Assembly: GCA_020809705.1 (NCBI GenBank)
Contig: CP085832.1
Span: 4,216,001 to 4,280,000 of the forward strand
Reading direction: 5' to 3'
Origin: Calonectria ilicicola
Lineage: Eukaryota; Ascomycota; Sordariomycetes; Hypocreales; Nectriaceae
Length of the DNA stretch: 64,000 nt
Shown: positions 16,474 to 36,210 of the stretch, one piece after another
Layout of the letters: each line of letters begins with the position of its first letter
How positions within the stretch are numbered: position 1 is the first letter of the stretch
Position numbers and translations under genes: made by a program
Notes under the pieces: generated by a model
Databases searched by the model: none
Told to the model about the DNA's origin: nothing
Seen by the model: only the letters and a program-made list of their open reading frames with translations

Positions 16474-16664
16474 ATGTCCGGCACCATCGGCAGTATGATA
16501 GTTCGTACTCTGGTTTGCTACTCAATCTCCGGATTGATAAGGCTGTGTGGTTTGCTACGCACTGTCTGGTTTCCTTCTCCATGTCCGGTTGTTACTGACC
16601 CGATTCCCGGTTTTCCACATGTCCGGCTCACTAAGCCATGTCCGACTTTGTGCGCAATGTCCGG
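16474..16664. promoter_or_regulatory. dense array of ATGTCCGG words upstream of the amino acid permease
   Basis: ATGTCCGG at 16474-16481, 16581-16588, 16619-16626 and 16657-16664, plus ATGTCCGA at 16638-16645 and related words (CTCCGGAT near 16527, TTCCCGGT near 16605). All perfect copies have the same orientation. The array lies 640-830 bases before the permease start. The word contains CGG, the half-site of many Zn2Cys6 factors, and recurs in the other cluster B promoters. Confidence 0.6.
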
Positions 16665-17303: not shown

Positions 17304-19139
17304 ATGGAGAAAACTTTGTCCGTGGAGAAGAGTCCGGGCTATGATGCCGAGGGAACCACGTATCAAGCGACGATCGCCTCGGACCAGATGGCTGGTCATA
17401 TTCGGGGTCTAGAAACATCGTCTGATACTATGCTGCACCGCGGACTCGAAGCGCGTCACATTACGATGATTGCTATTGCCGGTGCTATTGGCACTGGCCT
17501 CATTATTGGTGCTGGCAAGTCATTGGCTCTAGCTGGACCCGGTTCCATCTTCATATCGTACTCGATTGTCGGTTTTGTCGTCTTTCTTGTCATGGCAGGC
17601 CTAGGTGAGATGGCTACCTGGCTACCTATGAGTGGTGGCTTCACTGGTTATGCTTCAAGATTCTGCGATCCAAGTCTTGGCTTTGCACTCGGTTACACGT
17701 GAGTCTATTTTCCTAGCGACACATGGGCTTGTCTCACCTCGCCGCCAGTTAGAGGGGCCTTCTTCAACCATGCAGTTGTCTAACGGAAACTGACCTATTC
17801 GTCTCTAAAAGCTACTGGATCAAATATCTAATCGTTGCACCAAACCAACTTACCGCTGTTGCACTGGTCATGCAGTATTGGGTTGATCGTTCCAAGGTGA
17901 ATCCGGGTGTTTGGATCGCGATAGTATTGGTAATTGTTTTTATCATCAACTACTTTGGCATTGAAATCTTCGGCGAAATCGAGTTTTGGATGGCCGTTTT
18001 GAAGGTTCTGACTATTCTCGGCGTCATCGTCGTAACATTGGTTATTTCATTAGGTGGCGCACCTGACCGCGATCGTCGAGGATTCCGTTACTGGCAGGAT
18101 CCTGGGTAATTATCCTGTTAAATGCCAACCAGAAGCATTGCCGTACTGATTTATCACAGTGCATTTGCTACCTACATCCATGGTTACCGCTGTCTTTGCG
18201 TTCTTGGGTACTGAATTAGTGGGCGTCACCGTCGGAGAAGCTCAAAACCCTCGCAAGACGATTCCTCGCGCTATCAAGATGACATTTTGGCGTATATGCA
18301 TTTTTTACATTGTCTGTATTCTGTTGATTGGCATGTGCGTGCCATACAATGATTCCAGCCTAGCCTTTGCCAACACTTCCACAGCAAACGCCTCTGCGTC
18401 ACCATTTGTACTTGCTATCAAGCTTGCCGGCATCAAAGGTCTTGATCATGTGCTGAATGGATGTATCCTAATTTTCGTGTTCTCAGCTTCTAATTCCGAT
18501 CTTTATATAGCCAGTCGGACGCTTTACGGCCTTGCTTCCAATGGCAATGCACCCTCTATTTTCCGAAGGACTAACAAGAACGGCGTGCCAACATATGCTC
18601 TCCTTCCCTCAGCACTGTTTAGCTTGTTGGCATTTATGAATGTCTCTGACGACTCCAAGACAGTTTTCACCTACTTTGTCAATCTGGTAACCATGTTTGG
18701 CCTCTTGACCTGGATCTCTATCTTGGTGTCACATATTTCGTTTGTCCGTGCGCGCAAGGCTCAGAACATTTCAGACAGTGAACTGGCCTACGTCGCTCCT
18801 TTTGGTATTTGGGGATCCTATGCGGCCTTGTTCATCTGTGTTTTGATTACCATCACTAAAAACTTTGATGTTTTCACCGGTTCAGGGTTGAGAACCAAGT
18901 ACGCCACTTTCATCACTGGCTACCTCGGTATCCCGATCTATCTATCCCTGATATTCGGCCACAAGATTGTTACCAAGAGTAAAGGACTTAAGCTGACCAA
19001 AGTCGACTTTTATACTGGCAAGGATCTTATTGACAATGAAGAAGAAGCTTTCCTAGCCGCACAGGCTGAAAGAAACGCTGCGGAGAATACATCTGCTATT
19101 GCTGCCTTCTATAAGAGGTGGGTCTCATGGTTGTTTTAA
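17304..19139 (+). CDS. amino acid permease (AAT/YAT family, Dip5-like), probably frameshifted
   Basis: APC-superfamily amino acid:proton symporter. Exons 17304-17698, 17812-18105 and 18160-19139. Motifs RGLEARHITMIAIAGAIGTG, LGEMATWLPMSGGF and GVTVGEAQNPRKTIPRAI are diagnostic, and GFRYWQDPG recalls dicarboxylic amino acid permeases. The expected splice (GGGTAATT to CACAG at 18159) continues the family sequence as GAFATYI. The conserved following stretch (roughly GRFLGFWS) is then missing, and the downstream frame MVTAVFAFLGTELVG is offset by one. Read literally, translation stops soon after 18180. The rest is open to 19139, so this is either a recent deletion (pseudogene), an assembly error, or an unusual splice. 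One alternative, a GTTACT donor near 18087, keeps frame but loses conserved residues. If functional it would import an amino acid for the cluster B enzymes. Confidence 0.75.
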
Positions 19140-20149
19140 GCAGAGGTAGGGCTATACCTGTACTAGAGAATTAGGCTTGTTAAGATGTTGAGCGCAAGTA
19201 AAGGCCTAGATCCATAAAATAAAAGATTTTTCTTTTGTCATAATTAATAGTAGTTACACTTGGATTTGTGCTTTAGTTTCGTGAAAAGAATACAGTATTA
19301 CGACCCAAATGATAAAACCGTGGCTAATAACATCATAATCAGACGACCTACCCTGCACTAATCAGTCAAGAAAAGACTGACTGGGTCTCCCCAAACAAAT
19401 ACCCAACCAGAAGATAGTGATTCCCTTGAAGATAATCAGTCGAGGGATCGGAGTAATATTCGTATTATGATTACACTGTCGTGGCTATTAAGAAATTGCA
19501 AGGCAAATAGATCAGCAAACTATGCAACACTGGACAAGTAATTTACCAGATATTGCGATTGCGCTTCGGAGCTACCTAGTCCGGAATCTAAGGAGAAGTT
19601 GATTGCGGGGCTATTTTGCTACTAACAGCGAACACATTAGTCAAATTTCCTTCTCGGAAATCGAATCACCGTCAACTATGCAATGCATCTCTAGCCTCCA
19701 AGATAAACCGGAAGTACACGGAAATCACCCTATGGACAAACTCTATAGGGCATAACGTGATAGTAATCCTACGAGATGCAATTTTGTCTAATACGCCGAG
19801 GCTCAGGTTCTGGTAGTAAAGCGATAAATAAATATTTGTAAAAGGTGCTTAGGTTACGACTGGGTATTATCTTTCATATACTGTTCATATATAGCTTGAA
19901 AATGACTAACAGATACTAAATTATGTCTCCTGGCCTGTTGCTGAATCCAAACCTAGACCTGTACCCTCATAAAGTTCCCAAGAACACCATTTTAGAGAGA
20001 GTGTCGGAAGATAATCTGAGGTATGGGGAGAACTCTAGCATAAAAGCTTCGATCAATGTAATACTTGAATCTAATAATAGGATCCGTCAGAGGGCGCGAA
20101 AGCTATCAATTTATATATATAGAGTAGGACTAGAACGATACACGAGGAC
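19140..20149. other. intergenic, 1 kb without a gene
   Basis: AT-rich sequence between the 3' ends of the permease and the hydroxyglutarate dehydrogenase. Short frames at 19616-19816 and 19923-20165 have no support. Confidence 0.5.
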
Positions 20150-21811
20150 TCATATAAACTTATAAGGATTCATAATTCCGTTCTGCCGAGGTTAGTCGTA
20201 TTGAACAACTGGAACAGGGAAGATACTTACAGGATCATACATATCCCTTATCTGCTTCATCAATCCTAGGTTAGTTTCTGTCTGTGCCAACTGAATAAAT
20301 GGTTTTTTCGCCTGTCCTAATCCATGTTCGGCGCTGATACTGCCATGATTCTTTTGAACCCACTCGTATATCCAAGGCTCCAGGGCATCTCGTATTTCTG
20401 GAATGTACTCCTTTACTGACACATTCAAATGTAAATTGAAATCGCCAATATGTCCGTATCCAACCACCGTATTCACTACCGACGACTCGTGTGTGTGGCT
20501 GGCAAGTAGTCCTAATTGTTGGAGGCGATGTCGACAGTCCTCAACCAGTTGATACCATTTAGACATGGGTATTGATACATCATATTTGTATGTGCCACCC
20601 ATACTATTGATGACTTCCGCGATGTCTTCTCTCATCCGCCAAATATTGCGGGCCTGTAGCTCGCCTTGAGCCAGCACACCGTCTGCGACAACCCCTGCAC
20701 TCATCAGTTGTTCTAGGAAGTCCTCCATCTTCGCCGCATCATGTTCGCCTCTAGAACCGCTTGTCTCTACAATGCAATAGAACGGATACTCCTCCTGCAA
20801 AGGATACTGGATGCTGTCAAGTCGACGCACCAATTTCTGGCTTGCACCATCCATCATTTCAAATGCTGACAAGATCTCAGAAAGATATGTTTTGGCCTCT
20901 GAAAATGTTTTGCAAACATCTTCATAGCTTTTCAAGCCGAGATATGCCACATGGATGGCTTTGGGTTTCGGTGGGCATAGAATTGATACGCCAGTGACAA
21001 TGCCAAGTGTCCCTTCGGAACCAATAAACAATTGTTTGAGGGCATATCCAGTGTTGTCCTTTCTCAAAGAAGAGAGCGAATCTATAATCGTTCCATCGGG
21101 CAGAACGGCCTCTATTCCGAGTACGTTGGCTGAAAGGCTCCCGTATCGAAGCACTCGGAGCCCTCCCGCATTGGTGGCGATATTGCCACCGATGTGACAT
21201 GAGCCCTTGGCACCTAAATCCAAGGGAAAAATGTGGCCATGATCCTCGAGATATTGATTTGCAATTTCAAGGATCACTCCTGCGTCGGCTGTGAGGATCC
21301 CAGACATAGGGTTAAAACTCCGAATCTTGTTCATGTCCATGGTGCTGATCACTATTTCATCAAACACAGGCACAGAGCCCCCAACCAGACCCGTGTTCCC
21401 TCCTTGTGGTACGACAGCCAATTTCCTCTCATTGCAATATCGGAGGATTTGGCTGACTTGGTCTTTATTTTGAGGTTTAAGAACAAGTCTAGAACTCCCG
21501 CGATATTTGTGCATCCAGTCAACATTGAAATTTTCAATATCATCATGCCGACCCCCCGATAGATTATCTATGACGGCGGAAGAACGACCGAGCTGCTCAC
21601 GAAAGAAATTGAGGTCATCATGTGAGACCTGGGAATATCTGGGATCGCGTGCCGCACAATCGACGGTGCTTGAAGCTGCGTGGCTGTATGCCCTCCTAGA
21701 AAAGAATTGTCGACCCGTACATGAACTAATTCTCATACACTGATGTATGGGAGGGGATAAAATTAGGTACATACCACGGTTTCCATGAAAGGAATTGCAA
21801 ACCGGATGCAT
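20150..21811 (-). CDS. D-2-hydroxyglutarate dehydrogenase (FAD-linked, mitochondrial Dld2/D2HGDH type)
   Basis: FAD flavoenzyme oxidising D-2-hydroxyglutarate to 2-oxoglutarate. Exon 1 is 20231-21811. A second exon at 20150-20182 supplies the family's C-terminal NGIMNPYKFI after a 48-base intron (GTAAGT..GGCAG), giving 537 residues. The FAD-binding domain shows VPQGGNTGLVGGSVP, GSCHIGGNIATNAGGLRVLR and LRKDNTGYALKQLFIGSEGT. The C-terminal domain shows GYGHIGDFNLHLNV and the active-site SAEHGLGQAKK. An Arg/Ser-rich mitochondrial presequence begins at Met26 (MRISSCTGRQFFSRRAYS, ATG at 21736), so the true start may be there. It is divergent from the MFS gene at 22982, sharing a promoter with CCGGACAT words. 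D-lactate dehydrogenase is the main alternative, but the RKDNTGY and GSEGTLGI signatures fit D2HGDH better. Confidence 0.9.
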
Positions 21812-22038
21812 TTTAATGCTCTTGGGATGATTAAAATGATATCAAACAGTCATAGAAGCCTCTCTGTGATGCTCTGATCTGGGAATTTATGGTTATTCAG
21901 ATCAATGTTGCCAAAAGACTCATATCCCACAGTTTCACAAGACAGAAACCAAGGTATATTAGATTCATTAAACGGGGTACGTACAAATTTGCTAGCTAGG
22001 CAACTAGGTTTAGCCTATTCAAGTGTCCTTCGTAGTCT

Positions 22039-22056
22039 CGGACATTGGATGTCCGG
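22039..22056. promoter_or_regulatory. inverted repeat CGGACAT-TGG-ATGTCCGG
   Basis: Seven-base arms CGGACAT (22039-22045) and ATGTCCG (22049-22055) flank a TGG spacer, about 230 bases upstream of D-2-hydroxyglutarate dehydrogenase. A palindromic two-half-site arrangement of the cluster B word. Confidence 0.6.
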
Positions 22057-22528
22057 TTCACTAACACGACCGATTTGACCCTCCAATCGCAAAAGCGGTC
22101 AAGCAAAGATTGATGTCATCCAACAGGAATATCTTTGCTGATACGGGAGCACACTCCAATGACGGATGTAGAGGCTAGTTGGTTCCATTGTACAATCTCT
22201 TATCGCTACGTTAACGCCGGGATCATGGTCAAGTCATCTGTCTAACTAATGATTTAAAAAAAAAAAAATGCTGCGTATGCTCAGTAAGAACTCTGTTCTA
22301 AATATCTCTGCGTAATGATTTACAAAGGATATGCAAAATCCGCTTTCGCAAACTATCTACTACTTCTCTCAGAAGGTGTCACAACCATGTTGCCCATTCA
22401 CATAGCAGCCACGTCTCAGTCCAGGTATTTGGGATGGACGATGACCATGTGGCGCCAACCTGGACCCCCTATCAATTCTCGACATTGCCACAGCCCCACA
22501 TGACACACTCACTAGATCCGTCACCCGC

Positions 22529-22721
22529 ATGTCCATTGTCCGGACCTACGTTCATCGGACTTTGTAACTCATCATCTTGCTGCAAAAAAGACTTTTCCTC
22601 GGGCAAATACTAATTCATACTACGGACGTATGTGATTTATATTTCCGAGCCTTAACCTTTGGATGGAAACCCCAATGCGAGCAAACATCTCTCCTACCAT
22701 ATTCTTGAGTTACATGTCCGT
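22529..22721. promoter_or_regulatory. further CCGGACAT-related sites before the second MFS gene
   Basis: ATGTCC at 22529-22534 next to palindrome GTCCGGAC at 22538-22545; ATCGGAC at 22554-22560; ATGTCCGT at 22714-22721. They lie 260-450 bases upstream of the MFS start. Confidence 0.45.
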
Positions 22722-22981
22722 AGTGTTAGAAATACCGAAGCTCTTACGTAATGCACCATGGCTCTGCTTTCGATCTAAGATTTATCTGGGGTAGTCTGGA
22801 GAAGGTGGATTGTGGGGTAAAGTAAAATCCGGGGAATCTCCCAAATCCTATCAAGGAAATCTTGATATAAAAACGAGAACTCGCTCATATTTCAATCTTT
22901 TTGATAAAACAATCCACCCAAACTTCCAGTCTCTTTGGATCAAATATCAACTACAAGTTCCTAACTTACACGCAGCTTGAT

Positions 22982-24717
22982 ATGATGGATAGTCAACAAT
23001 CCGACACAAAAAGTGAGAAATATGCAACAAGTCAAACTGTCCATGAGAATGAGAATGGCACCGCCATTCACAAAGATAATCTTGAGTATTCTGAAGATTG
23101 CATCAAGTATATCGCGTCTGGGCTGAGTGTCGACGATGCTCACTTCCTCGCATCGGTTTCAGTCGAAGAGCAGGATCGTATCTTCCGCAAAGTTGACTGG
23201 CGCTTGGTTCCATACTTGGGCGTTCTTTATTTGATCGCGCACCTTGACAGAGCGAACATCGGCAATGCCAAAATTGAAGGGCTTGAAGCCAGTCTTGGGA
23301 TGTCTGATGTCGATTATAACATTGCTGTCGCAATATTTTTCATCCCCTACGTACTCTGCGAGGTTCCCAGCAACCTTATTCTGTCTAAATTCACCCGTCC
23401 AAGTTGGTACATGGGAGTTCTAGTACGTATCTCCAACACCTTCTTCAGACAGAGATCTTATAATAATATTACCTTACAGGTTGTTTCTTGGGGAATTGTC
23501 ATGACCACGTGTGGGGTTGTTAAGAACCTTAATGGTCTAATCGCAACGAGATTCATGCTTGGTCTTCTTGAGTAAGTGAATCATTTCCATCATCTGGGTA
23601 TTAATCCTTTGACTGTACATTTCTAATGTGATAAAAAAACAGGTCAGGCTTCTTTCCTGGCGCAATTTGGCTCTCCAGCCAATGGTACCCGCCGCATAAA
23701 TCTCAAGGACGAATGGCCCTGTTTTATATGGCTAGCGCCCTAGCAGGCGCATTTTCTGGGCTGTTGGCGGCCGCAATCGCAAAGATGGATGGTGTTGGTG
23801 GTTATGAAGGTTGGCGATGGATCTTCCTCATCGAAGGTCTTGCATCTGTACTCGCCGGTGCACTCACCTTCTTTCTGCTACCGGATACACCGAAACTATC
23901 TAAATGGCTGACGCCTGAAGAGGCTCGATTTTTGGAATGCATGCATCGAGCTACACGTGGTAGTAAGGCGAAAGTTGAAGAAGAGCCGGGAAGCACAGGA
24001 AAGAAGTGTTTCAAATGGGGTATCTTATGGAGTGTGGTCAAAGATTGGCAATTGTATCTTCAGGCAATGGTCATGGCGTCCAACTCAGTTCCAAATTATG
24101 CTCTCAAAGTCACCATGCCACAAATTATCCGGAATATGGGCTTTACCTCGCAGACGTCTCAACTTCTCACGGCACCACCCTACATATTTGGTGCAATTTC
24201 TGCTGTCGTCGCTTCCTTTTACGCTGATCGTTTCACTTGGCGTATGCCATTCATTGTGGCATCTCAATCACTACTCATCATTGCCTATGCGGTGCTTTTC
24301 GTTAAAGCAGACGACATTGCTGACAACGTGGCTGTCTGTTACTTCTGTGTTTTCCTGGCCTGCATCGGAATCTATCCAATCATTCCTGGGTGCTTGGCCT
24401 GGACGATAAATAATCTTGCTGCAGCTGAAAAGAGGGCCATGGGAATAGCATTTATGATGTGCATGGGGAACAGCGGAGGTCTCGTAGGAAGCTTCATATT
24501 TCTCGACAAGGAGAAGCCAAAGTATCCTACCGGATTTGGTGGATCATTAGCATTTGCCGCATCAGGTATGATGTGTGCATTGACATTGGAGCTTTTATAC
24601 TATAGGTCCAACCAACAGAAAGCAAAGCTCACTGAGGAGGAAGTACATGCAAAATTCACTCAGGAACAGCTTTACAAGATGGGGGATCGCTCACCACTAT
24701 TCAAATATGGACTGTAA
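22982..24717 (+). CDS. MFS transporter, Dal5/allantoate permease family (second copy)
   Basis: Twelve-helix carboxylate/anion symporter of 535 residues. Exons are 22982-23422, 23480-23571 and 23643-24717, phases consistent. The long hydrophilic N-terminus is followed by LVPYLGVLYLIAHLDRANIG, FFIPYVLCEVPSNLILSK, SGFFPGAIWL and YPIIPGCLAWTINN. It is a clear paralogue of the MFS gene at 14428, sharing the loop sequence AKMDGVGGYEGWRWIFL and the C-terminal tail SPLFKY. Intron positions differ only partly. It is divergent from D-2-hydroxyglutarate dehydrogenase, with cluster B motifs in the shared promoter. It probably imports the cluster B substrate (an amino or keto dicarboxylate); the real substrate is unknown. 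Confidence 0.92.
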
Positions 24718-25939
24718 GGTGCTACAGACCGGTTAGTGGTTAGGCTTTACTCCTAGAGAGGCTTTCGATTCAAACTCAACCTCCAGAGTCTTCATTGTCA
24801 ACAGTTTCTCAGTTCTTCATGGGAGTTGCTTGATTAGCTTCTATACAGAACTGATAAATATTCTGGATTTTATTATATTCATAAGCACCCAACGATGCAC
24901 AAACCAGTTATACCATCTTCTCTTGCATATACCGATGAAACTACTCCGTGTTTCATAAATTTGTCTATGTGTGATTTTACTGCATCCAGATTTAGGGTCT
25001 TCCAGTTGAAGTGAGCTTGCACATTCTCTGGACAGTTCATGTTTCGCAATGCAGTATTCTTCACTGTAGCAGCGCAGTAAATAGATGATTAAAACTCCTT
25101 GTTCCTTAACAAGGGGAATTTCTCACAGAGGCGTTGAATATATGCAACTGCTCCAGTTCCACCTGTAACTTCGGGTACGGTCCGGACCATATAACCCAGG
25201 TTTTCGACATGATCAATATGAAAGCCAGTTCGCCTTTCTGTGGAGGTTGATAATCTCCCGAGCTCAATGATGTCGTAATAGTTGCTTTTGCCAAATCAAG
25301 CGACTTCTCAATAAGCGATATCAAAATTAGACGGATTTCGGCATAGAAGTGAAAGCATTCTAGGGTTATTGACCAAGTAATTAAGAAAGATCATTAAGAC
25401 TTACATTTTGGGACTTTGCTCCATCAATCAGGTTTTCATCTCTGTAATCAGATGTCACATGCTCTCGTTGGAACATCCCAACGCTTTACCATGCTCTTAC
25501 GCACTTGGCCTTTCCATTTCATAGCCTTACTTTTTCTCTTGTCTTCATTTTCCCACCCTTTTCGCTCTGGTTTATTGAGAGTATACTTCTCATAGGGACC
25601 ATTCTAACAAGGACAGGGCGGGTATCATTTTGGCATCCATGTGAGTGGATCTCCTCCAGCCCATGGCTCAAGTTTTTGATTATTTTATCGCGAAAAAGGA
25701 AGACATAACTAATTTTTTATTATTCGCCTACATTTCCGAAATTTTGCCCCAATGATATTGACACTTGGACCAAACGAAAATAACTGATACTCGCTTGAGG
25801 TGGGTTATTCCCACTCCCCTCCTAGTGCTAAGCAGAGTGTGATTGGACTTCTTACGCTATATTGGAAACGATTTGTAAATTTCTATGTCACAAATAAAAG
25901 TCTCAAGCTATGAAAAATATACTTTCTGCTATGAGATTC
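24718..25939. other. intergenic, with a doubtful coding remnant
   Basis: Between the convergent ends of the MFS and aminotransferase genes. Apart from the weak locus at 24882-25478 nothing is seen. Confidence 0.4.
24882..25478 (-). pseudogene. possible gene remnant, unrecognised
   Basis: Minus-strand pieces look coding but do not join into one frame. An ATG near 25478 opens MFQREHVTSDYRDENLIDG and ends at a good GTAAGT donor near 25400. Further on, one frame reads TGGTGAVAYIQRL and another TTSLSSGDYQPPQKGELAF. A last piece near 24879-25064 reads NCPENVQAHFNWKTLNLDAV. No domain is recognised. It is either a small gene with introns I cannot resolve or a decayed copy. Confidence 0.2.
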
Positions 25940-27224
25940 TCAGCTACTTTCCTCCCCTTCAATGACGTGAGCCCAGATATGATCTTCGTTTCCGAATTGG
26001 ATATTTTCTAGCCATGTTTTAATCTGAGCTCTATAGCTGAGACCTTTATCATTCGCTAAAGCGATATCCATATTCACTCCCTCATTACGAATAGTTGTGA
26101 CCGCCGTGATAAAATACTATACAATGTCAGAATATGTGGATTTCGACCCAATGGTCCGTTCTTAAATAACTTACCGCTGTGCCTGTGACAAAAGCTTCGA
26201 TCAACCGACCTTGTCTCCAAGCTTGCTCAATTTCATCGAACGTGACATCTCGTTCTACAACTTCAAGAGGTGGGAGCCCGCTGACAGATTCCGTAAATCT
26301 AGATCGGGACAGGTCTAGAACACTTTTTCTAGTGATGCCGTTGAGAATGAGCTTGCTATCGAGACTTGGGGTGATGAGTTCATTGCGGCCCGTTATTTCG
26401 GATGTCCAGACTAGAAATAAATTGCTGGCGCCAGCCTCCGTTACAGTACGCTTAGGACCGAAAAGCCATAGAATTTGATCAAAGCCCTGGTCTGTAGCAG
26501 CGCGATGAGCCTCCAAAGATGGACCATAATTTGCCCCCAATTTGGCGAATCCGAAGCCTCCCGGCCAAGCCCGAGTCGAATCAGGAGGCGATGTTAACAG
26601 CTTCAGACCGCAAGGCTTACCAGATTCTGTCTGAGACAAATTCTTGTAAGGTGTTGCAATCACCAGTAGCAACGCCTCGTCGGGTATCTTGTATCCGAGC
26701 TTTTTACCAGTTCCAATGATTGCGGGCCGAATGTAGAGGAAGTGCCCGGGTCGGTCCTTGGGAAGCCAGCCTGTTCTTGGTTACATATGATTTTTCAGAG
26801 AGTTAGTATGTGGACGAAGCTTACGTGGGCCATCAATTTGCAATAACCTTGAGATCATGTCCTTCAGTTTGTCCGGAGGAAACTGGGGCAAGGAGCCTCT
26901 CTCAGCGCTCATGGCGAGTCGATCACCATTTAGATCTGGGCGAAAGAGTCGCAATTTACCATCATATCCTCTGTAAACCTTTAACCCCTCAAAACATTCG
27001 GTGGCATAATGAAGACATGAAGCAGTGGGAGAAATTGAAATATCTCCAAACGGGCGTACCTCCGGGGTCTCCCACCCAGCGAGTGCGGTCCATTTAACTA
27101 TCAGAATGTGGTCGGTGTTGGGAAGAACAAGATATTCAAGTGAATTTGGCACCGGAACCTCAGTTAAATTCGTTGATTTGACAACTTGGATATCGAATCC
27201 ATTGATGCTGCCCAAGGATCCCAT
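25940..27224 (-). CDS. class IV PLP aminotransferase (branched-chain aminotransferase-like)
   Basis: PLP enzyme that exchanges an amino group between an amino acid and 2-oxoglutarate. Exons 26825-27224, 26175-26770 and 25940-26116 give 390 residues. The last exon adds YFITAVTTIRNEGVNMDIA, and the splices are GTAAGC..ACAG and GTAAGT..ATAG. Family features: HYATECFEGLKVYRG, LYIRPAIIGTG, the PLP-lysine segment FGFAKLGANYGPSLEA, TEAGASNLF and LILNGITRKSVLDL. No mitochondrial presequence is seen, so it is probably cytosolic. It is divergent from the HglS-like gene and shares a promoter with two ATGTCCG words. Branched-chain enzymes use Leu, Ile and Val. Next to a 2-oxoadipate dioxygenase, a 2-aminoadipate aminotransferase role is the more attractive inference. 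Confidence 0.92.
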
Positions 27225-27777
27225 GTTCGTGGATTTTGTTAGGTTCCAATAATAAAAAGAGCAAAAGTATATGGGTAAGTAACCAATTAATTTGTACCAG
27301 ACTTTCTAGATCAAAGAAGAGATTACTTAACCTTACATCGTTTTAAATAACTTAAGAATTAATTTCACTGCTATACTGCCAGCGGATATTGACGGGGATC
27401 AATTTGCGCCAGCACAGCAAAAGCCAAAAGGTGGAAGAAGCATCAAAATTTCGGATATGCAGATCCGCATCAGTTCGGACTTTCCTTCAACCACCATCTT
27501 AGCCAAAACCCGGAACCCCAATGTCCGTTCTCTCGGCCATAATGTCCGATCAACTACTCCAGTGTGTGAACATCATACGAGAGCCAAGAGCTAAGGCAAC
27601 CGAAATAACCCGGCGGATTGGATCTACCAGAATTCCCAATTAAATTTAATCTTCGCTGTAAATTCTGCAAAATGTCTGGTTCAAAATCACAGGTCTTCAT
27701 CATTCATCATTTCTTGTGAGAAGTACCGCTATTGTTACCATAAGCCCAGTCTCCTTGTCTTGCATTTGCTAGCAATC
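27225..27777. promoter_or_regulatory. divergent promoter aminotransferase/HglS with ATGTCCG sites
   Basis: ATGTCCGT at 27521-27528 and ATGTCCGA at 27542-27549, 21 bases apart. TTCGGACTTT (near 27474) and ATGTCTGG (near 27672) are weaker relatives. No gene lies in the interval. Confidence 0.5.
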
Positions 27778-29130
27778 ATGTCAACTGCATCGAAATATGT
27801 CTCCTCAGACGAAATACGAGCCCTACTCGCGTCAGCTTTATCTGAAATGTATCGTCGCGAGGTTCCTCAGTATGGTACACTTTTAGAGTTGGTGTCAGAG
27901 ATCAACCAACGTGCTGGTGCAAACATTACCCAAGATAACCAACACCGGTTTGAAGTGGAACGCCATGGCGCAATCCGGTTGGGCACAGCTGATGAGTTGA
28001 ATATGATGCGAAAAATGTTCGCCATAATGGGCATGCAGCCCGTGGGATATTATGATCTGACTGTTGCCGGTCTACCTGTACATGCGACTTGTTTTCGGCC
28101 TTTGACTAAGGAGTCTCTGGCTATCAATCCATTCCGGGTCTTCACATCTCTCTTACGGCTTGATCTGGTGGAGGACCAATCGCTTCGGGCCCGAGCTGAA
28201 AAAATCCTTTCCAAACGACGCATCTTCACCCCGCGTTGTATCGAAATGATCGATCAATTTCAATCGGCAAATTCCTTACCTAAGTCAATTGCTCAAGAGT
28301 TCGTGGAGGAAGCTCTTGAAACTTTCCGATGGCATAAATCATCGACAGTTGATATGGCGACCTACAGGGATCTCCAAAATGCCCATCCCCTGATTGCCGA
28401 TGTTGTGTGCTTCAGGGGACCTCATATCAATCATCTTACACCTAGGGTAGTCGACATCGAAGCCGCCCAAGTTGAGATGAAAAGACGCGGGCTGCAGGCT
28501 AAATTGGAGATCGAAGGGCCACCGCGAGAGTCATGTGCCATTTTACTGCGCCAGACCAGCTTTCTAGCCTTGGAAGAACAAATTGCTTTCTCAGACGGCG
28601 CTGAAGTGGGTGGTAAACACAAAGCCCGCTTTGGTGAGATTGAGCAGAGGGGAGCTGCTTTGACAGAGAAGGGGCGTTTTATCTATGATGAGTTAATACA
28701 TGAACTACGACAAGCCTCTTTGATTGGCGACCTGCCACTGAAAAAGGATATTATTAATAAGTTTGTTGCAGCTTTCCCTAGTGATCTGCCTACACTTCAC
28801 CGAGAAGGCTTGGCCTATTTTACATACCACGTCAACCAAGCTGGATACGACAAAATGCAAACTTGGGGCCAGGAGGATGTTGATTCCTTGATCCTAGCAG
28901 GCATTTTAGACTTGGAGCCGATTACATATGAGGACTTTTTGCCAGTCAGTGCAGCTGGAATTTTCCACTCTAATATCGGTGACGAGAGCGAGGGGAATTC
29001 GACAGGTGGTGACCGGGCTGGTTTTCAGAAAGCACTTGGATGCAGTGTTGAAAACGAGTTCAAGCTCTACGAAAAAATGCAACAAAGCTCCTTGAAAAGC
29101 TGCTTGGCACAGCTTGCCAGAGCTCATTAG
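27778..29130 (+). CDS. 2-oxoadipate dioxygenase/decarboxylase (HglS/YdcJ, DUF1338)
   Basis: Fe(II) enzyme of the DUF1338/HglS family, which converts 2-oxoadipate plus oxygen to D-2-hydroxyglutarate and CO2. Single exon, 450 residues from ATG 27778. Near-textbook motifs: ERHGAIRLGT (His63, Arg67), MGMQPVGYYDLTVAGLPVH, NPFRVFTSLLRLDL, ETFRWH, DVVCFRGPHINHLTPR (His216/His219), IEGPPRESCAILLRQTSF and ARFGEIEQRG (Glu287). His63, His219 and Glu287 fit the family's metal triad. The known bacterial partner is D-2-hydroxyglutarate dehydrogenase, which is encoded 6 kb upstream here. It is divergent from the aminotransferase that could supply 2-oxoadipate. Plant and bacterial homologues act in lysine breakdown. 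No targeting peptide is visible. The family call is secure; the substrate is inferred by homology. Confidence 0.95.
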   Translation: MSTASKYVSSDEIRALLASALSEMYRREVPQYGTLLELVSEINQRAGANITQDNQHRFEVERHGAIRLGTADELNMMRKMFAIMGMQPVGYYDLTVAGLPVHATCFRPLTKESLAINPFRVFTSLLRLDLVEDQSLRARAEKILSKRRIFTPRCIEMIDQFQSANSLPKSIAQEFVEEALETFRWHKSSTVDMATYRDLQNAHPLIADVVCFRGPHINHLTPRVVDIEAAQVEMKRRGLQAKLEIEGPPRESCAILLRQTSFLALEEQIAFSDGAEVGGKHKARFGEIEQRGAALTEKGRFIYDELIHELRQASLIGDLPLKKDIINKFVAAFPSDLPTLHREGLAYFTYHVNQAGYDKMQTWGQEDVDSLILAGILDLEPITYEDFLPVSAAGIFHSNIGDESEGNSTGGDRAGFQKALGCSVENEFKLYEKMQQSSLKSCLAQLARAH

Positions 29131-29269
29131 AAATAGTGGAAGAATGGCTGAATGAGACGTAACAGTTGAGGGAAATTGATTTCATCTGCTATCGTTTGCC
29201 ATGTCTTTTGGTGCCCCATGTGGAGTTAATCTGGTAAACGGCGACTTAGCAGGCTCAAGACATCCCTGT

Positions 29270-29537
29270 CTTGGGGGGATTGTCCGTCTAGTTGTTTGGA
29301 AATGGATCTTTGGGCTGCCCATTACTAAATGCTAAACATTCAAAAACCCCGCATAAAAATTTAGTATGATATAAATTTTAAAAGATGAAAATTGATACGT
29401 TCAATAAATCTCCGTCTTGGGAGGATTGTACAACTAGTTTTTTGGAGATGGATGTTTGGGCTGCCCATCACCAAGTACTGAACATTCAAAAACACCACAT
29501 AAGGATTTGGTTTGATATGAGTTGTATAAAGATGAAA
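29270..29537 (+). repeat. imperfect tandem duplication of about 121 bases
   Basis: Copy 1 (29270-29390) and copy 2 (29416-29536) share CTTGGGNGGATTGT, GGATNTTTGGGCTGCCCAT, AACATTCAAAAAC and AAAGATGAAA in the same order and spacing. The offset is 146 bases. Located between the convergent 3' ends of HglS and the racemase. Confidence 0.75.
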
Positions 29538-29562
29538 GTCCATCTACAACTATGGTCTATGG

Positions 29563-30261
29563 TTACTTTAACGCTAGATCTACAGCGGCCTGTGCATGGG
29601 CAAAGGTAGTATCGATGATAGGAACCGAGCTATCTTCCTCCTTTACCAGCATCCCGAACTCAGTGCACCCAAGGATAATGACCTCGGCTCCTCGCGCAAT
29701 CAAATCATCTATAGCAGCCTTGAACTTTTTTCTAGTTTCAGGCAAGAAAATATTCTTGGCAAACTCTTGGTAGAGAGCATTGTGCACATTTTGCTGATGC
29801 TCGCCCTCCGCGATCAACACGCCTAGTCCATACTTCTCCTTCAGGCGACCAACAAAATATGTTCCAGTCATCGTATATCGACTACCTAGAAGCCCAACTG
29901 TTTTGACTCCGAGTTCCAAGGCCTTTGTAGCGGCGGGGTCGACAATGTGGAGTAGAGGCAAGTCCACATTTTGAATCACATACTCGTCGACAGTATGGAC
30001 AGTGTTGCACGCTATGAGGAAGAAGTCTGCGCCTGCAGCCTTAAGTTTGTTGCCTTCCTCGACGAGTAATTTTCCGACTTCATCCCAATTTCCCTCTGAT
30101 TGGGCCTTTTCGAAGAGGGCGAAGTCAGTTTGGGTGATGATCAGATTGGGTGTGTTTATGCCATTGCTATCAATGCGTTCCCTGACGTAGGTATTGAGTA
30201 ACTTGTAGTAGACCACTGTGCTCGGCCAAGCTACGCCTCCAATGACTCCGATGGTTTTCAT
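29563..30261 (-). CDS. aspartate/glutamate-type racemase (cofactor-independent)
   Basis: Single-exon protein of 232 residues in the Asp/Glu/hydantoin racemase superfamily. The start MKTIGVIGGVAWPSTVVYY is the first beta strand and loop. The two catalytic Cys sit in IACNTVHT (Cys85) and ILGCTEFG (Cys199), the two-base arrangement of PLP-independent racemases. Length matches bacterial YgeA-like broad-specificity racemases, and intronless structure adds to a bacterial flavour, though this alone does not prove transfer. It is divergent from the glutamate dehydrogenase gene. In cluster B it may interconvert D- and L-forms of an amino acid (for example aminoadipate or lysine), letting a D-isomer enter the pathway. 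Substrate cannot be read from sequence. Confidence 0.9.
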   Translation of the reverse strand: MKTIGVIGGVAWPSTVVYYKLLNTYVRERIDSNGINTPNLIITQTDFALFEKAQSEGNWDEVGKLLVEEGNKLKAAGADFFLIACNTVHTVDEYVIQNVDLPLLHIVDPAATKALELGVKTVGLLGSRYTMTGTYFVGRLKEKYGLGVLIAEGEHQQNVHNALYQEFAKNIFLPETRKKFKAAIDDLIARGAEVIILGCTEFGMLVKEEDSSVPIIDTTFAHAQAAVDLALK

Positions 30262-30761
30262 TTTGGTCTGCGCCAGAGGGATGTGGTCAACTTGCGAAAT
30301 TCAAAACAAAGGCAGAAAAGGGCATGTCTTACATTGGAAGATGTTCCTGTATTTTCACAAGCGTGGTAAATCTTGACAGAATCAAGAAGTGGCGAAATAA
30401 GCTGTGATGATGAACACACAAATTTGCCTCCAGTCTCGCATGTTATGCCCTTTTTTAATACTTGACGATTTATCCGACCTAGTGTGGGTCAGAATTCCTC
30501 AGGAGTCAGGATAGTGTGTTTGGATAATTGGGGCACTTCCGCTCCGCATATTTCGGAAGTTGAATTTGCGGCCAGCCCAAGTGACGGCAAATAAGTCCGT
30601 CCTCGACACTCGGCTTCATCTGCAAGTCCGGCCCCATTCGGACAACCAAGTGCCTTCCGGTCATGATGAGCTGAGTGGCATTCTTCCATATACAAAACAG
30701 ATTTTAATGCCATTGAGATTTGACGCATGGTTAGTGTTCTGTGATCTGCATCTGGAATACA
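30262..30761. promoter_or_regulatory. divergent promoter racemase/GDH with degenerate CGGAC sites
   Basis: AAGTCCGG at 30624-30631 and TCGGACA at 30638-30644 form an inverted pair, and AAGTCCGT lies near 30593. These are weaker matches to the cluster B word. No gene is seen. Confidence 0.4.
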
Positions 30762-32315
<1,554 letters not shown>

Positions 32316-32642
32316 ACAGTGCGCCATTGCCATTGTATGAGGAGCCTGTACCTAGTTAAATTGCGTGTGGACCAGCCTTCCGTCAGTGGACGTTAGCACG
32401 CCGCTGTTGAAGCCTCTACCCGCATCAGGTCTAGCCCCTCTGGGGCATACCCCACACACACGCTGTCTCGACCTACATAACATAACTGATAATCTCTCGC
32501 CACCGGCAAAAGCCTGTGTCCGTGATCCCTTGGTTAGTGCTCTCTGGAGCCATCCACCTTGCAGACTCTTCTTCCCAGGCTCCGGCGTGAGTGACATCGC
32601 CCAAAAATATATCAGAGGCTGGTGTGTTTTGTAAACTGCAAC

Positions 32643-35060
32643 ATGGCCACCCGTGCGTCATCCCACGGGCCTCCGCCAAATCGAACACCGAGGGCCCGGG
32701 ATACGTGTAGAACCTGTGTCGGCTGTCGTCGCAAGAAGGTAATACAGATATCCCCGCATGTATAACCTCCCCATATTGCGGCCGCTTACTTACAAGCCAT
32801 GACCGCTTAGGTGAAATGCGATAGTCGACGGCCAAGATGCAGTCATTGTCGCAACAGAGACGCCATCTGTGAATATCCTCAAGATGCCAGGCGGACCGCG
32901 GTGCGTCCCCGGAAAGAAGTCATCACAAGCCTAGAAACTGAAGTGCAGATGCTACGACGACGCCTTCGCCATTCCGGACAGCCAGAGCAGCAAAATCATT
33001 CCAACAAGTCACCCCTTCACGGCAGCCCTGTTGATGACCAAACCACCGCTATTGATGTTGACGATGGCTCAGGAATCCACGTCGCCTCAGCTTCCACAGA
33101 ACTCCAAGAGCGTGACCGAAACCACCTACCCTCAAACACTCCCTCGGGACCAATTGACATTGTCGGTGAACATAATGATCAAAGCTTCCTCTCGCCCGAC
33201 CCAACCCCCGATGCCGATGAGATTGAGCAATACTCGCTCCCCCTATACGGCGCTACGAGTCTGCTGGACCGTCATTCTCCCGCTATGCATTCTACCAAGT
33301 CTAACCGCACAGCATCGGTGCGTGACAATCATTACGAGTCCAGGGATTCTGCCAAGCATTACCTTATTGCTCAAGCGGCGCTTGGTCGACAAGCAGAAAT
33401 GGCTCTGCGCTCAACCCCGAGTATTTACTCCCACATCGATTTTGACGGTGTTCCTCTGGACATGGCTTTGCATCTTTTGGACCTTCACTGGAACCGACAG
33501 CATCTCTCATACCTCCTGACATATAGGCCCGCAATCATGGACAGCTTAATAAACAACGGACCCTATGTAAACCGACTTCTTCTTAATGCCATCTATCTTC
33601 AAAGCAGCCTATACAGTGATCGCGCATTGTTGTGCGCCGATCCCAAAGACCCGCAAACCAAAGGCATTGCCTTTTATGACAGATTCAAAAGTTTGCTGGC
33701 TTACCACATCGACGAGCCTACTGTTCCAACAGTAGTTGCACTGCTGACCTGCGGAGCTTGTCTTGTGCCCCGAGGCAAACAGAGCGCAGGCTGGGGGTAC
33801 TGTGGCCTTGCTTACAGGATGATATTGGACCTGGGTTGTCACCTAGACCCGGAAGAACTGTCACAGAGGGGATCCAGTCCTGTAATCACGGCAACTGACA
33901 AAGAAATGCGAAAGAGGCTTTATTGGGGCGCCTACGTCGGAGACAAGCTACAATCGCTATTCCTAGGTCGACCTCCCGCCCTTGACGAAGCTATTGGCAA
34001 TGTACCGCTGGATTATTATGACAGCTTTGAAGAAATGGAAGAGTGGAAACCTTATATAGATCCTCTTGCTGATCCAGTCGACAGCCCCCAATACCAAGGT
34101 CGACCTACATATGCCATTAGCACGTTCCGCTGCTTGGTGCATCTTTGCAAACTCGCAAGTCGAATTATAAAAGCATTTTACGCCTTTGATAGCCCAAAAC
34201 AAGCTCAGTCGACATTAGTCCAGGTAAGAAAAGACATTCGAGCGCAACTGGCAGCTTGGAAAGACCAAGTTCCTAGCTGGCTGTTGTTTACACCAGACTC
34301 GGACCCTACTCCTCCCCCTCATCAAATAACTCCCTAGTAAGAACACGCTCCACATCAGCCCTTGATTACATCCACATCTAGCCTAACATTATATGTAGTA
34401 CCCTCTACTGGACACTCGTTATTCTAGTTGAACATCCCTTCCTTGACCAAAACCATTTCCCATTTTCGCTCGATGAAGGAGACCAACGCCAAAGCAAAGA
34501 AACATGTATTCAAGCTGCTCTACAGATCTGGAAATTGTTAGAAGCCTATAAATCCTCCTTCACGCTTAGGCGTGCTCAATATGGAATTGCCTATGCCACC
34601 TACTGTGCAGTTCTCGTTATTCTTCGTCATACAGACCAAGATAGCGATGAGTATATTGAGTGTATACGCTTCTTCTGGTTTGCTCTTCTGGAATATCAAC
34701 GTGGATGCAGCTTTGGCTTAAAAAGACCTCTGAAACTGCTGAGGTCATTGATGCAACGCATACAACGAGTTACTCAAAGCATTAACATGGATCTCACCGG
34801 CGATGGCCAGCAAATGGGATCAACTCGTGGGTTTCAAGGTCGCATTGATTCCCTTTCATGTGCTAATTGAACCTTGTATAGGACTACAGACAGAGATTGG
34901 TGCGATGTTTAACCCGAATTTTCTCGGGGACGCGGGTGAGAACTTGGAATTTGACCAGAATTGGTCCGATCTGATCATGCAAGATGGATGTCTTGTCGAT
35001 GACATTGTATTTGGGGTTGCTAACGACAATATGTTTGGCCTGTTCACACAAAATCAATAA
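32643..35060 (+). CDS. Zn2Cys6 transcription factor (cluster B regulator candidate)
   Basis: Predicted nuclear regulator, 746 residues. Exons 32643-32738, 32811-34336, 34399-34838 and 34882-35060. The first intron splits the zinc cluster, which joins as CVGCRRKKVKCD then CSHCRNRDAIC (C-x2-C-x6-C-x6-C-x2-C-x6-C). A basic linker and a heptad stretch (SLETEVQMLRRRLRH) follow. The fungal-trans domain is seen in WGYCGLAYRMILDLGCHLDP, EMRKRLYWGAYVGDKLQSLF and LGRPPAL, closest in style to NirA-like factors. Introns 3 and 4 were placed to recover LYWTLVILVEHPFL and the acidic C-terminus EIGAMFNPNFLGD. It lies just downstream of GDH, at the edge of cluster B. Binding to the CGG-containing ATGTCCGG words is plausible but unproven. 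Confidence 0.88.
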
Positions 35061-36210
35061 TGTTACGTATACACATGCTTAGCCAAAAGGCCTCCGTCTG
35101 AAACAAGCTCATTTCTCAATTTCCGATCTTGTGCCATTATGTTTTCACAGTCATACATACACCCAATTCTCACAGACGCTGAGTCATGTGACTAGTAAAT
35201 CAATGCAACAATGATATTGTTGCCGACCGTTGGCACCGAAACCTTTCAGCAAGATTAGACCCATGCACCGTACTAACACCACAATTTTATACCGCATCTT
35301 TCATTGATTCCAGCATTATAAGAGGGGATGGTGCATTAGATTATTTCTAAAGGACACATATTTTAGAAGTTGTTCGGCCAAGATCTGCGGAATATCTGGC
35401 GAGTGCAATATGTCTACTTTAATGGCAGCCGCAGCTAGCGATGAAACATATTCCGGGGAAACGATGGCATCAATAGTATGCATTGATAACCCTGTCGTGC
35501 TGTTCCTTGTAAGACAGTCGACGTTATGCAGAGGACTGAATAGGTGTGGGCGTGACCACTGGGTTGATTGATCGGACATTATGACCGAGAGACCGGACAT
35601 TGGAGTTCCGAGCTTCAGGTCAACCAGCTGGTGGTTGCAGGTCAAGGCCAAATTGGGGCGGATTTTGCAACTCCGGTTTTTTTCCGTCACGTTTGTTCTC
35701 CCTCTCGGCTTTTACAGTGCCGTCCCAGGTTGATGCGCGCCCATATCCGCTAGCCACACTACTCCGTACTATTAAACTCGGTGAAATTATTAGCTGATAC
35801 AGAGATTCTTTACTCACTAGACACAAATTTCCGACGCAGCCAAAAGATACCTTGGTTTACGTCATTGATTCGCAAATGGGGACGGGACGAATGGATTTAC
35901 TGTCATGATCTCTATTGTCTAAATTCTTCACAACCTATGCTTCCGCCCGCTTTTGCAAAAACAACAAATTAAATCAGATGTGATCAAATACTCCTAGTCA
36001 TGCAAAATAAAGCAAGTAAGATATTTTTCAACAGCTAGTTTACAAAGTATAGAAAAGAATATTCCCATGTGTGTGTTCTCCAGGCAAACCCTTCCTCATC
36101 AGAGTCTCGGCAAAACCAGCGGTACTTGGACATAGGACATCAGGCAACCACTCTCAAAATGGCCCACTACGGTACTACGACGCCCGTCTAGAGCTTCGCG
36201 AGGAATGCGC
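35061..36210. other. intergenic after the regulator, with two CCGGACAT words
   Basis: Contains TCGGACAT at 35572-35579 and CCGGACAT at 35593-35600, in the same orientation 21 bases apart. A minus-strand frame at 35316-35690 has no domain support. If the motif marks cluster B promoters, an unrecognised small transcript may start here. Confidence 0.45.
35572..35600. promoter_or_regulatory. CCGGACAT pair at the end of cluster B
   Basis: TCGGACAT (35572-35579) and CCGGACAT (35593-35600), 21 bases apart, the same spacing as the pair at 27521/27542. Not obviously in front of a gene. Confidence 0.4.

What the first reader, a model, noticed from the sequence alone, without database searches (positions are those of the whole stretch)
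17304..35060. Candidate fungal gene cluster converting 2-aminoadipate (lysine-derived) to 2-oxoglutarate through D-2-hydroxyglutarate
Seen: within 18 kb, an HglS/DUF1338 protein with the full His-His-Glu metal set, a D-2-hydroxyglutarate dehydrogenase, a class IV aminotransferase, an NADP-type GDH, an Asp/Glu-type racemase, a dicarboxylic-type amino acid permease, an MFS carrier and a Zn2Cys6 regulator. Known: HglS turns 2-oxoadipate into D-2-hydroxyglutarate and D2HGDH oxidises it to 2-oxoglutarate in bacterial lysine catabolism; a plant homologue does the same. Inferred: the aminotransferase makes 2-oxoadipate from 2-aminoadipate, and GDH balances amino groups. I know of no described fungal cluster that packages this route with import and regulation.
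Basis: partly seen in the sequence, partly recalled or inferred. Interest (0 to 1): 0.88.

Follow-up and report, generated by a model that had tools for sequence, protein, structure and literature searches.

The report
Likely fungal 2-aminoadipate catabolism gene cluster
A fungus carries, side by side and with a shared DNA signal in their promoters, a set of genes whose enzymes together could turn 2-aminoadipate, a relative of lysine, into the central metabolite 2-oxoglutarate by way of D-2-hydroxyglutarate, a route described in bacteria and plants.

Summary
HglS (27778-29130), a D2HGDH, a BCAT-family (class IV) aminotransferase, an Asp/Glu racemase, an extra GDH, an MFS carrier, a permease and a Zn2Cys6 regulator lie within 18 kb. 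Random placement in this 69.9-Mb genome would give about 3e-11 such HglS loci.

HglS passes the NCBIfam equivalog cut-off (608 vs 550 bits); the four paralogues scored, of six, do not. Metal ligands and the 2-oxoadipate-binding Arg are kept.

New here: ATGTCCG is the most enriched 7-mer in five cluster promoters (10 vs 0.30 expected), and four of seven genome-wide direct pairs lie in the cluster. The BCAT belongs to a supported six-member clade with two altered pocket positions; in two of its species BCAT and HglS come from contigs of equal length. A D2HGDH sister occurs in Fusarium oxysporum.

Best reading: a co-regulated, patchily distributed cluster 2-aminoadipate -> 2-oxoadipate -> D-2-hydroxyglutarate -> 2-oxoglutarate. 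The 2-aminoadipate step is inferred, a lysine origin is not shown, the permease frame is doubtful, and gene order elsewhere was not seen.

The parts
14664..16190 (+). MFS1, about 50% identical to MFS2 over its last 301 residues; possible left-hand member
   Evidence: tblastn of MFS2 hits 14664-14834, 14908-15630, 15306-16190; PF07690 on 15288-16190. Exact start not modelled
16474..16663 (+). Five ATGTCCG sites upstream of the permease, three of them 19 bp apart
17304..19139 (+). Amino-acid permease (PF00324); frame doubtful at intron 2
20192..21811 (-). D-2-hydroxyglutarate dehydrogenase, 539 aa, one exon; N-terminus resembles a mitochondrial signal (my judgement); the genome has another copy on C2
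22039..22055 (.). CGGACAT-TGG-ATGTCCG inverted repeat, the only CGGACATNNNATGTCCG found in the genome, in the divergent D2HGDH/MFS2 promoter
22982..24717 (+). MFS2 carrier, 535 aa, 3 exons (Dal5-like is a recalled label)
25940..27224 (-). Class IV (BCAT-family) aminotransferase, 390 aa, exons 26825-27224, 26175-26770, 25940-26116; PLP lysine in GFAKLGANYG
27378..27564 (+). Core of the divergent BCAT/HglS promoter with two ATGTCCG sites (27521, 27542)
27778..29130 (+). HglS, 2-oxoadipate dioxygenase/decarboxylase, 450 aa, single exon; H63, R67, H219, E287, V390, S391
29563..30261 (-). Asp/Glu-type amino-acid racemase, 232 aa, cysteines C85 and C199 at the active-site positions
30762..32315 (+). 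Glutamate dehydrogenase of the NADP type, 459 aa, 4 exons; 57-62% identical to another GDH on C6
32643..35060 (+). Zn2Cys6 regulator with Fungal_trans domain, 4 exons in the models found
35557..35754 (-). Duplicated copy (71% over 198 bases) of the BCAT/HglS promoter core, with two ATGTCCG sites (35573, 35594); no clear gene behind it

Best explanation
The stretch 17304-35060 is one co-regulated catabolic cluster. Shown by sequence: an HglS, a D2HGDH, a BCAT-family aminotransferase of a separate clade, a racemase, an extra NADP-type GDH, carriers, a Zn2Cys6 regulator, and a repeated CGGACAT element in the promoters. Inferred mechanism: a dicarboxylic amino acid, most likely 2-aminoadipate, enters through MFS and/or permease; the racemase brings the D-form to the L-form; the BCAT-family enzyme moves its amino group to 2-oxoglutarate, giving 2-oxoadipate and glutamate; HglS (Fe(II), O2) decarboxylates and hydroxylates 2-oxoadipate to D-2-hydroxyglutarate; D2HGDH oxidises that to 2-oxoglutarate; GDH regenerates 2-oxoglutarate or frees ammonium. 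The Zn2Cys6 protein probably reads the CGGACAT sites. At least the aminotransferase belongs to a patchily distributed lineage whose nearest kin are Eurotiales enzymes, although two other BCAT copies of the host look sordariomycete.
For: HglS: equivalog NF049974 608 > 550 bits, while the four paralogues scored reach 441-535. Ligands and Arg74-, Val402-, Ser403-equivalents are present (role of Arg74 in PMC7286885, passages). D2HGDH: best solved relative human D2HGDH; Arg386, Lys401, Tyr432, His434, His441, Asn443, Glu475 and His476 equivalents kept. Co-localisation: about 3e-11 expected loci. Regulation: ATGTCCG first of 2764 7-mers (10 vs 0.30), CGGACA in 5 of 5 promoter regions; the inverted repeat occurs once in the genome, here; 4 of 7 genome-wide direct pairs. 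BCAT clade 100/98 with two pocket positions changed in 6 of 6 members against 0 of 14 comparison rows. Equal contig length for BCAT and HglS in C. costaricense (1,072,506) and P. verhagenii (2,297,197). D2HGDH sister in F. oxysporum f. sp. albedinis, 100/99.
Against: No expression or enzyme data. The AT substrate is inferred from two pocket positions and gene order. The permease frame is doubtful. D2HGDH lacks the Thr390 equivalent; human mutants of Thr390 and Asn443 lose 2.6-3.4-fold activity, though yeast DLD2/3 have Pro there. Two of five promoters have no exact ATGTCCG, and a fourth convergent stretch (35061-36213) holds two. Control patterns of the two repeat searches also occur genome-wide, once and five times. 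Neighbourhoods in other fungi were not visible. None of 80 bacterial HglS loci showed a relative of the BCAT, racemase or GDH within the flanks held. The window HglS does not nest among Eurotiales as the BCAT does, so the cluster may have been assembled from parts. Six other HglS loci could serve the same or other substrates.
Confidence: 0.66

Rival explanations
1. The route serves lysine, pipecolate or D-lysine catabolism, with upstream enzymes encoded elsewhere; the cluster is only the lower half.
For: 2-oxoadipate is chiefly known as a lysine catabolite (PMC7286885, passage). An aldehyde dehydrogenase at 3570-5023, about 12 kb left of the cluster, is up to 63% identical to one near the C1 HglS paralogue and could in principle be a semialdehyde dehydrogenase.
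Against: The Pfam scans of chosen open frames (not every frame of the window) showed no saccharopine, pipecolate or lysine oxidase family. The ATGTCCG sites do not extend to the aldehyde dehydrogenase. Another HglS on C1 lies just downstream of an aspartate-aminotransferase-type gene and is as good a candidate for a housekeeping lysine route.
Confidence: 0.2
2. A cluster for using acidic D/L-amino acids in general (glutamate, aspartate, D-glutamate), with racemase and GDH as the core and HglS-D2HGDH as a side branch.
For: The racemase matches aspartate/glutamate racemases best; an extra GDH copy is present.
Against: Glutamate and aspartate need no HglS. P. putida HglS acted only on 2-oxoadipate among seven 2-oxoacids, 2-oxoglutarate included (PMC7286885, passages), and the Arg that sets this is kept. 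HglS shares its divergent promoter with the aminotransferase, not with the racemase.
Confidence: 0.14
3. The BCAT-family enzyme keeps branched-chain specificity and this HglS accepts another 2-oxoacid, so the cluster makes or degrades other 2-hydroxyacids.
For: BCAT family; seven HglS loci in one genome suggest some have drifted in substrate. The comparison BCATs also lack Phe at the Phe30 position, and Tyr/Phe at the Val155 position is still a hydrophobic side chain.
Against: Both pocket positions differ from all 14 comparison rows in 6 of 6 clade members; HglS keeps the Arg74 and Ser403 positions; D2HGDH keeps the distal-carboxylate residues except Thr390.
Confidence: 0.1
4. Chance neighbourhood without common function.
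For: None of the other six HglS loci has these partners.
Against: About 3e-11 expected loci under random placement; promoter element concentrated in the cluster.
Confidence: 0.02

Closest known systems
Pseudomonas putida D-lysine/2-aminoadipate branch (HglS, then D2HGDH)
   Same: HglS of the same NCBIfam equivalog; 2-oxoadipate to D-2-hydroxyglutarate (PMC7286885 abstract and passages); oxidation on to 2-oxoglutarate is recalled
   Different: Here a fungal cluster; D2HGDH is the human-like type, and a BCAT-family aminotransferase, racemase, GDH, carriers and Zn2Cys6 regulator lie with it. Of 80 bacterial HglS loci, 17 showed a D2HGDH-like FAD gene in the flanks (up to 7 kb; several only 21-25% identical) and none the BCAT, racemase or GDH
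Plant FLO7/AT1G07040 route of lysine catabolism
   Same: Same chemistry, 2-oxoadipate to 2HG (PMC7286885, passages)
   Different: FLO7 is about 15% identical to HglS and most plant homologues carry a plastid tag (same passages)
Human mitochondrial D2HGDH and yeast DLD2/DLD3
   Same: Family and active-site residues; 500.6 bits to human D2HGDH
   Different: Thr390 equivalent is Ala here and in three relatives; yeast has Pro
Fungal and human BCATs
   Same: Family and PLP lysine; 258 bits to human BCAT1
   Different: Separate clade; Phe30 equivalent Asn/His instead of Cys, Val155 equivalent Tyr/Phe instead of Val/Ile in the rows compared

Membership tests
HglS (2-oxoadipate dioxygenase/decarboxylase, NF049974) | Score above the curated equivalog cut-off of 550 bits | tested here: met
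   608 bits; four of six paralogues were scored and reach 441-535
HglS (2-oxoadipate dioxygenase/decarboxylase, NF049974) | Two His and one Glu metal ligands | tested here: met
   H63, H219, E287 aligned with 6w1g and invariant in 15 rows; which residues are the ligands is recalled, the paper text gives no numbers
HglS (2-oxoadipate dioxygenase/decarboxylase, NF049974) | Arginine that binds the distal carboxylate (Arg74) | tested here: met
   R67; role in PMC7286885 (passages)
HglS (2-oxoadipate dioxygenase/decarboxylase, NF049974) | Turns 2-oxoadipate into D-2-hydroxyglutarate | not testable with these tools
   needs an assay
D-2-hydroxyglutarate dehydrogenase | Closer to D2HGDH than to D-lactate dehydrogenase or glycolate oxidase | tested here: met
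   6lpn (human D2HGDH) 500.6 bits; 3pm9 'putative oxidoreductase' 302.7; D-LDH 122.3; glycolate oxidase 107.8
D-2-hydroxyglutarate dehydrogenase | Residues Arg386, Thr390, Lys401, Tyr432, His434, His441, Asn443, Glu475, His476 | tested here: inconclusive
   8 of 9 kept; Thr390 is Ala in the window, P0222, P0215 and P0208 (positions assigned by me from the alignment)
Branched-chain aminotransferase (as an activity) | Substrate pocket as in hBCATm (Phe30, Val155 and others) | tested here: inconclusive
   Asn at Phe30, Tyr at Val155; family and catalytic Lys present; comparison fungal BCATs also lack Phe30 (Cys), so substrate stays unproven
Asp/Glu racemase family (TIGR00035) | Above subfamily cut-off, two catalytic cysteines | tested here: met
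   164.2 vs 93.1 bits; C85 and C199 (E. coli protein has Thr at the first); catalytic role of the pair recalled
Fungal catabolic gene cluster | Linked pathway genes, transporter, regulator | tested here: met
Fungal catabolic gene cluster | Shared regulatory element in promoters | tested here: met
   CGGACA in 5 of 5, ATGTCCG in 3 of 5 promoter regions; binding by the cluster's own regulator not tested
Fungal catabolic gene cluster | Conserved gene neighbourhood in other species | tested here: inconclusive
   equal contig lengths for HglS and BCAT in 2 species; distances unknown
Fungal catabolic gene cluster | Co-expression | not testable with these tools
   no transcript data

The most novel reading that the evidence does not exclude
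An accessory, horizontally shared fungal regulon for 2-aminoadipate in both mirror forms: a BCAT remade into a 2-aminoadipate aminotransferase, a racemase that admits the D-form (as in the side chain of cephalosporin C and penicillin N, recalled), HglS and a dedicated D2HGDH, all driven by a Zn2Cys6 protein through paired CGGACAT sites. It would be the first eukaryotic gene cluster for the HglS/D-2-hydroxyglutarate route that I know of.
Probability: 0.35. Interest if true: 0.8.

Novelty: new variant of a known kind. Interest (0 to 1): 0.64.

Why it matters
The passages of PMC7286885 that I read say that almost no fungal lysine catabolic pathway is fully characterised and that the role of fungal HglS homologues remains to be examined. 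A compact cluster with its own regulator and promoter element gives that question a direct test: one regulator, one divergent promoter, three enzymes, one product. It also points to a BCAT lineage with changed pocket positions, and to a fungus that probably makes D-2-hydroxyglutarate as an intermediate and carries an extra enzyme to remove it. My searches of the open-access library (listings) showed no paper on such a fungal cluster; subscription papers and preprints were not covered.

Tried and rejected
D-lactate or glycolate dehydrogenase instead of D2HGDH: rejected on scores. HglS as one of the host's other HglS lineages: rejected; the window copy lies in a fungal clade (SH-aLRT 99) apart from the six own paralogues (99) and from the bacterial rows. 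Recent transfer of HglS from bacteria: not shown; the clade spans several orders of Pezizomycotina by name and the root is unknown. The 35.56-35.75 kb element as a degraded HglS or BCAT gene: only promoter similarity found. Cluster motif at the other six HglS loci: 0 to 3 ATGTCCG per 17-18 kb. First intron models failed and were replaced. No structure prediction and no RNA-family search was run.

Limits. The tree rows were picked by me: one search used 49 of 120 listed proteins, 28 of 80 bacterial loci and 6 own paralogues; one search used 37 of 120 and 6 own BCATs, 28 of 120 and 4 own; one search used 44 of 120, 24 of 120 (P0215 and P0208 left out there; one search warned that the window and P0215, both long branches, meet). 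In one search both members of the window pair are long branches; the AU test rejects grouping them with the host's other copy, p 0.006. The host's other D2HGDH sits beside Xylona among Onygenales rows (98/94), but that list holds few sordariomycetes. The C. costaricense and P. verhagenii link rests on equal 'longest contig' lengths, compared by eye. Of pairs of HglS with another BCAT from one assembly, 1 of 4 shared a length (F. venenatum, 12 Mb, gene numbers g4554 and g9492; P. angulare N7456, F. lateritium ACHAP5 and D. estremocensis did not). F. oxysporum HglS hits are from other formae than the BCAT hit, so they say nothing. In one search P0301 looks misannotated near one pocket position and P0307 lacks the lysine region. 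The motif background (214 kb of own genome) includes coding DNA; the five sites before the permease are partly a tandem array; two of the four direct pairs in the cluster share a site and one lies in the duplicated promoter. One further exact ATGTCCG lies inside the D2HGDH gene (20450), two lie left of the cluster (430, 15785).


Full report
What is there. The window is C8:4216001-4280000 of an unnamed 69.9-Mb genome in 12 contigs. Two other BCAT copies of the same genome group with sordariomycetes (L030 in a set with Verticillium, Staphylotrichum, Cytospora and Diaporthe, L032 with Nectriaceae), so I take the host for a sordariomycete. From left to right the cluster reads: MFS1 (to 16190), permease (+), D2HGDH (-), MFS2 (+), BCAT-family aminotransferase (-), HglS (+), racemase (-), NADP-type GDH (+), Zn2Cys6 regulator (+). 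D2HGDH/MFS2, BCAT/HglS and racemase/GDH are divergent pairs with shared intergenic DNA.

The enzymes. HglS matches 2rjb (453 bits) and P. putida HglS 6w1g (442 bits) over nearly its whole length. It passes the NCBIfam equivalog cut-off (608 vs 550), whereas the four paralogues scored, of six, reach 441-535. Metal ligands (numbers recalled) and the Arg74, Val402 and Ser403 equivalents are present. In PMC7286885 (passages read) Arg74 contacts the distal carboxylate, R74A is inactive, HglS acted only on 2-oxoadipate among seven 2-oxoacids, and the authors predict the same reaction for family members with this Arg, fungi included. D2HGDH is far closer to human D2HGDH (500.6 bits) than to D-lactate dehydrogenase (122.3). 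Of the nine substrate-site residues named in PMC7801405 (passages read) eight are kept and Thr390 is Ala. The same Ala occurs in P0222, P0215 and P0208. Of the 120 listed relatives a motif search found Thr in 115, Ala in 2 and no match in 3, of which P0208 was then placed by alignment.

The copies are extra ones. The genome has another D2HGDH (C2, 59% identical), another GDH of the same type (C6, 57-62%), further BCATs (best 53% over 296 residues) and racemases (best 74%). The locus therefore gathers additional copies of central enzymes around HglS. With the genome-wide counts, about 3e-11 HglS loci with all four partner families within 8 kb are expected under random placement; the window is the only one of seven loci with any listed member within 190 kb.

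Regulation. I counted all k-mers in the five promoter-bearing intergenic stretches (3660 bases) against 213,606 bases of the same genome. ATGTCCG ranks first of 2764 7-mers (10 seen, 0.30 expected, Poisson 1.2e-12) and lies in 3 of 5 stretches; the 6-mer CGGACA ranks first of 1594 (13 vs 1.19) and lies in 5 of 5. Three convergent stretches hold no exact ATGTCCG; a fourth, 35061-36213, holds two. Over the whole window ATGTCCG occurs 15 times against 6.9 expected, largest of 100 shuffles 13. Genome-wide, CGGACATNNNATGTCCG occurs once, in the D2HGDH/MFS2 promoter; its reversed control also occurs once. ATGTCCG-N11-15-ATGTCCG occurs seven times, four of them in the cluster's intergenic DNA; the reversed control occurs five times, so the other three are at background level. 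A 28-base element shared by the BCAT/HglS promoter and position 35573-35600 is found nowhere else at up to 3 mismatches. It lies in a 198-base duplication of that promoter (71%). CGG-containing paired sites are what Zn2Cys6 regulators generally bind (recalled), so the cluster's own regulator is the natural reader; this was not tested.

Relatives elsewhere. HglS: the top listed relatives are Fusarium and other Pezizomycotina, mostly at 57-65%; named bacteria reach 53-54%; four own paralogues 38-45%. BCAT: the window enzyme, C. costaricense P0241 and F. oxysporum f. sp. albedinis P0242 form a clade (98/93), joined by P. verhagenii, P. herquei and P. malachiteum copies (100/98), inside a set otherwise made of Eurotiales enzymes and one unnamed row (100/99). 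P. herquei has both this and the ordinary type. In all six, the residue before the T-D-H motif (Phe30 in hBCATm) is Asn or His, against Cys in 14 of 14 comparison rows, and the Val155 equivalent is Tyr or Phe, against Val (13) or Ile (1). PMC6957111 counts Phe30 and Val155 to the substrate pocket, Phe30 at its entrance (passage read). In the two species of this clade for which HglS was also listed from what looks like the same assembly, C. costaricense and P. verhagenii, both proteins come from contigs of the same length. D2HGDH: the window copy pairs with F. oxysporum f. sp. albedinis P0222 (100/99), and an AU test rejects placing that pair with the host's other copy (p 0.006). Both branches are long, so this is weaker than the BCAT result. 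The HglS tree does not show a Eurotiales nesting, so the parts may have different histories.

Bacterial comparison. HglS next to a D2HGDH-type enzyme thus recurs; the rest of the fungal set was not seen there.

Mechanism, with status. Import by MFS2, MFS1 and/or the permease: inferred, and the permease frame is doubtful. Racemisation of the D-form: family shown, substrate inferred. 2-aminoadipate + 2-oxoglutarate to 2-oxoadipate + glutamate: inferred from position, the shared promoter with HglS and the pocket changes. 2-oxoadipate to D-2-hydroxyglutarate: strongly supported by homology. D-2-hydroxyglutarate to 2-oxoglutarate: strongly supported by homology. GDH balancing nitrogen: inferred. 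Lysine as the source: not shown; an aldehyde dehydrogenase at 3570-5023 lies outside the motif-bearing stretch.

Verdict. It is a new variant of a known kind: known chemistry in a packaging that none of my literature listings described.

Noticed in passing
G000 C1, C2, C3, C7, C10 (two) and the window (L001-L008): Seven HglS/PF07063 loci in one fungal genome; the window copy is 37-46% identical to five of the others. The C7 copy has Asn at the Ser403 position and a changed region around the second His; the C3 copy has stops inside.
   Followed up: partly
L009:4534-5941 and L009:6735 onward (C1): Another HglS lies just downstream of an aspartate-aminotransferase-type gene; possibly a housekeeping lysine route.
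   Followed up: partly
L019/L020 (C3): Near the broken HglS copy the Pfam scan shows a Cys/Met-metabolism PLP enzyme and an L-PSP/RidA-like gene.
   Followed up: no
window 35557-35754: Duplicated BCAT/HglS promoter core, minus strand, with no recognisable gene behind it; perhaps a lost cluster member or a small unannotated gene (about 56 codons).
   Followed up: partly
window 17304-19139: Permease frame breaks at the consensus-like second intron; an upstream GTTACT donor keeps it open.
   Followed up: partly
window 11597-13288: One open frame with AtuA and DUF4387 domains left of MFS1; its role in fungi is unknown to me.
   Followed up: no
window 3570-5023: Aldehyde dehydrogenase up to 63% identical to one near the C1 HglS paralogue (L010:7818-8543).
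   Followed up: no
C8:4159470-4160165 (L030): Another BCAT (53% identical, sordariomycete type) about 82 kb from the cluster's BCAT on the same contig.
   Followed up: partly
P0223 (tree): A D2HGDH filed under Fusarium sp. NRRL 66182 sits with Talaromyces (100/100); contamination or transfer.
   Followed up: no
L079: A contig filed under Bacillus subtilis SK7B5 carries an HglS 52% identical to the query, among titles that are otherwise Pseudomonadota as far as I can tell by eye; possible contamination.
   Followed up: no
window 59127-64000: NACHT/NPHP3_N and HET-domain genes to the right of the cluster.
   Followed up: no
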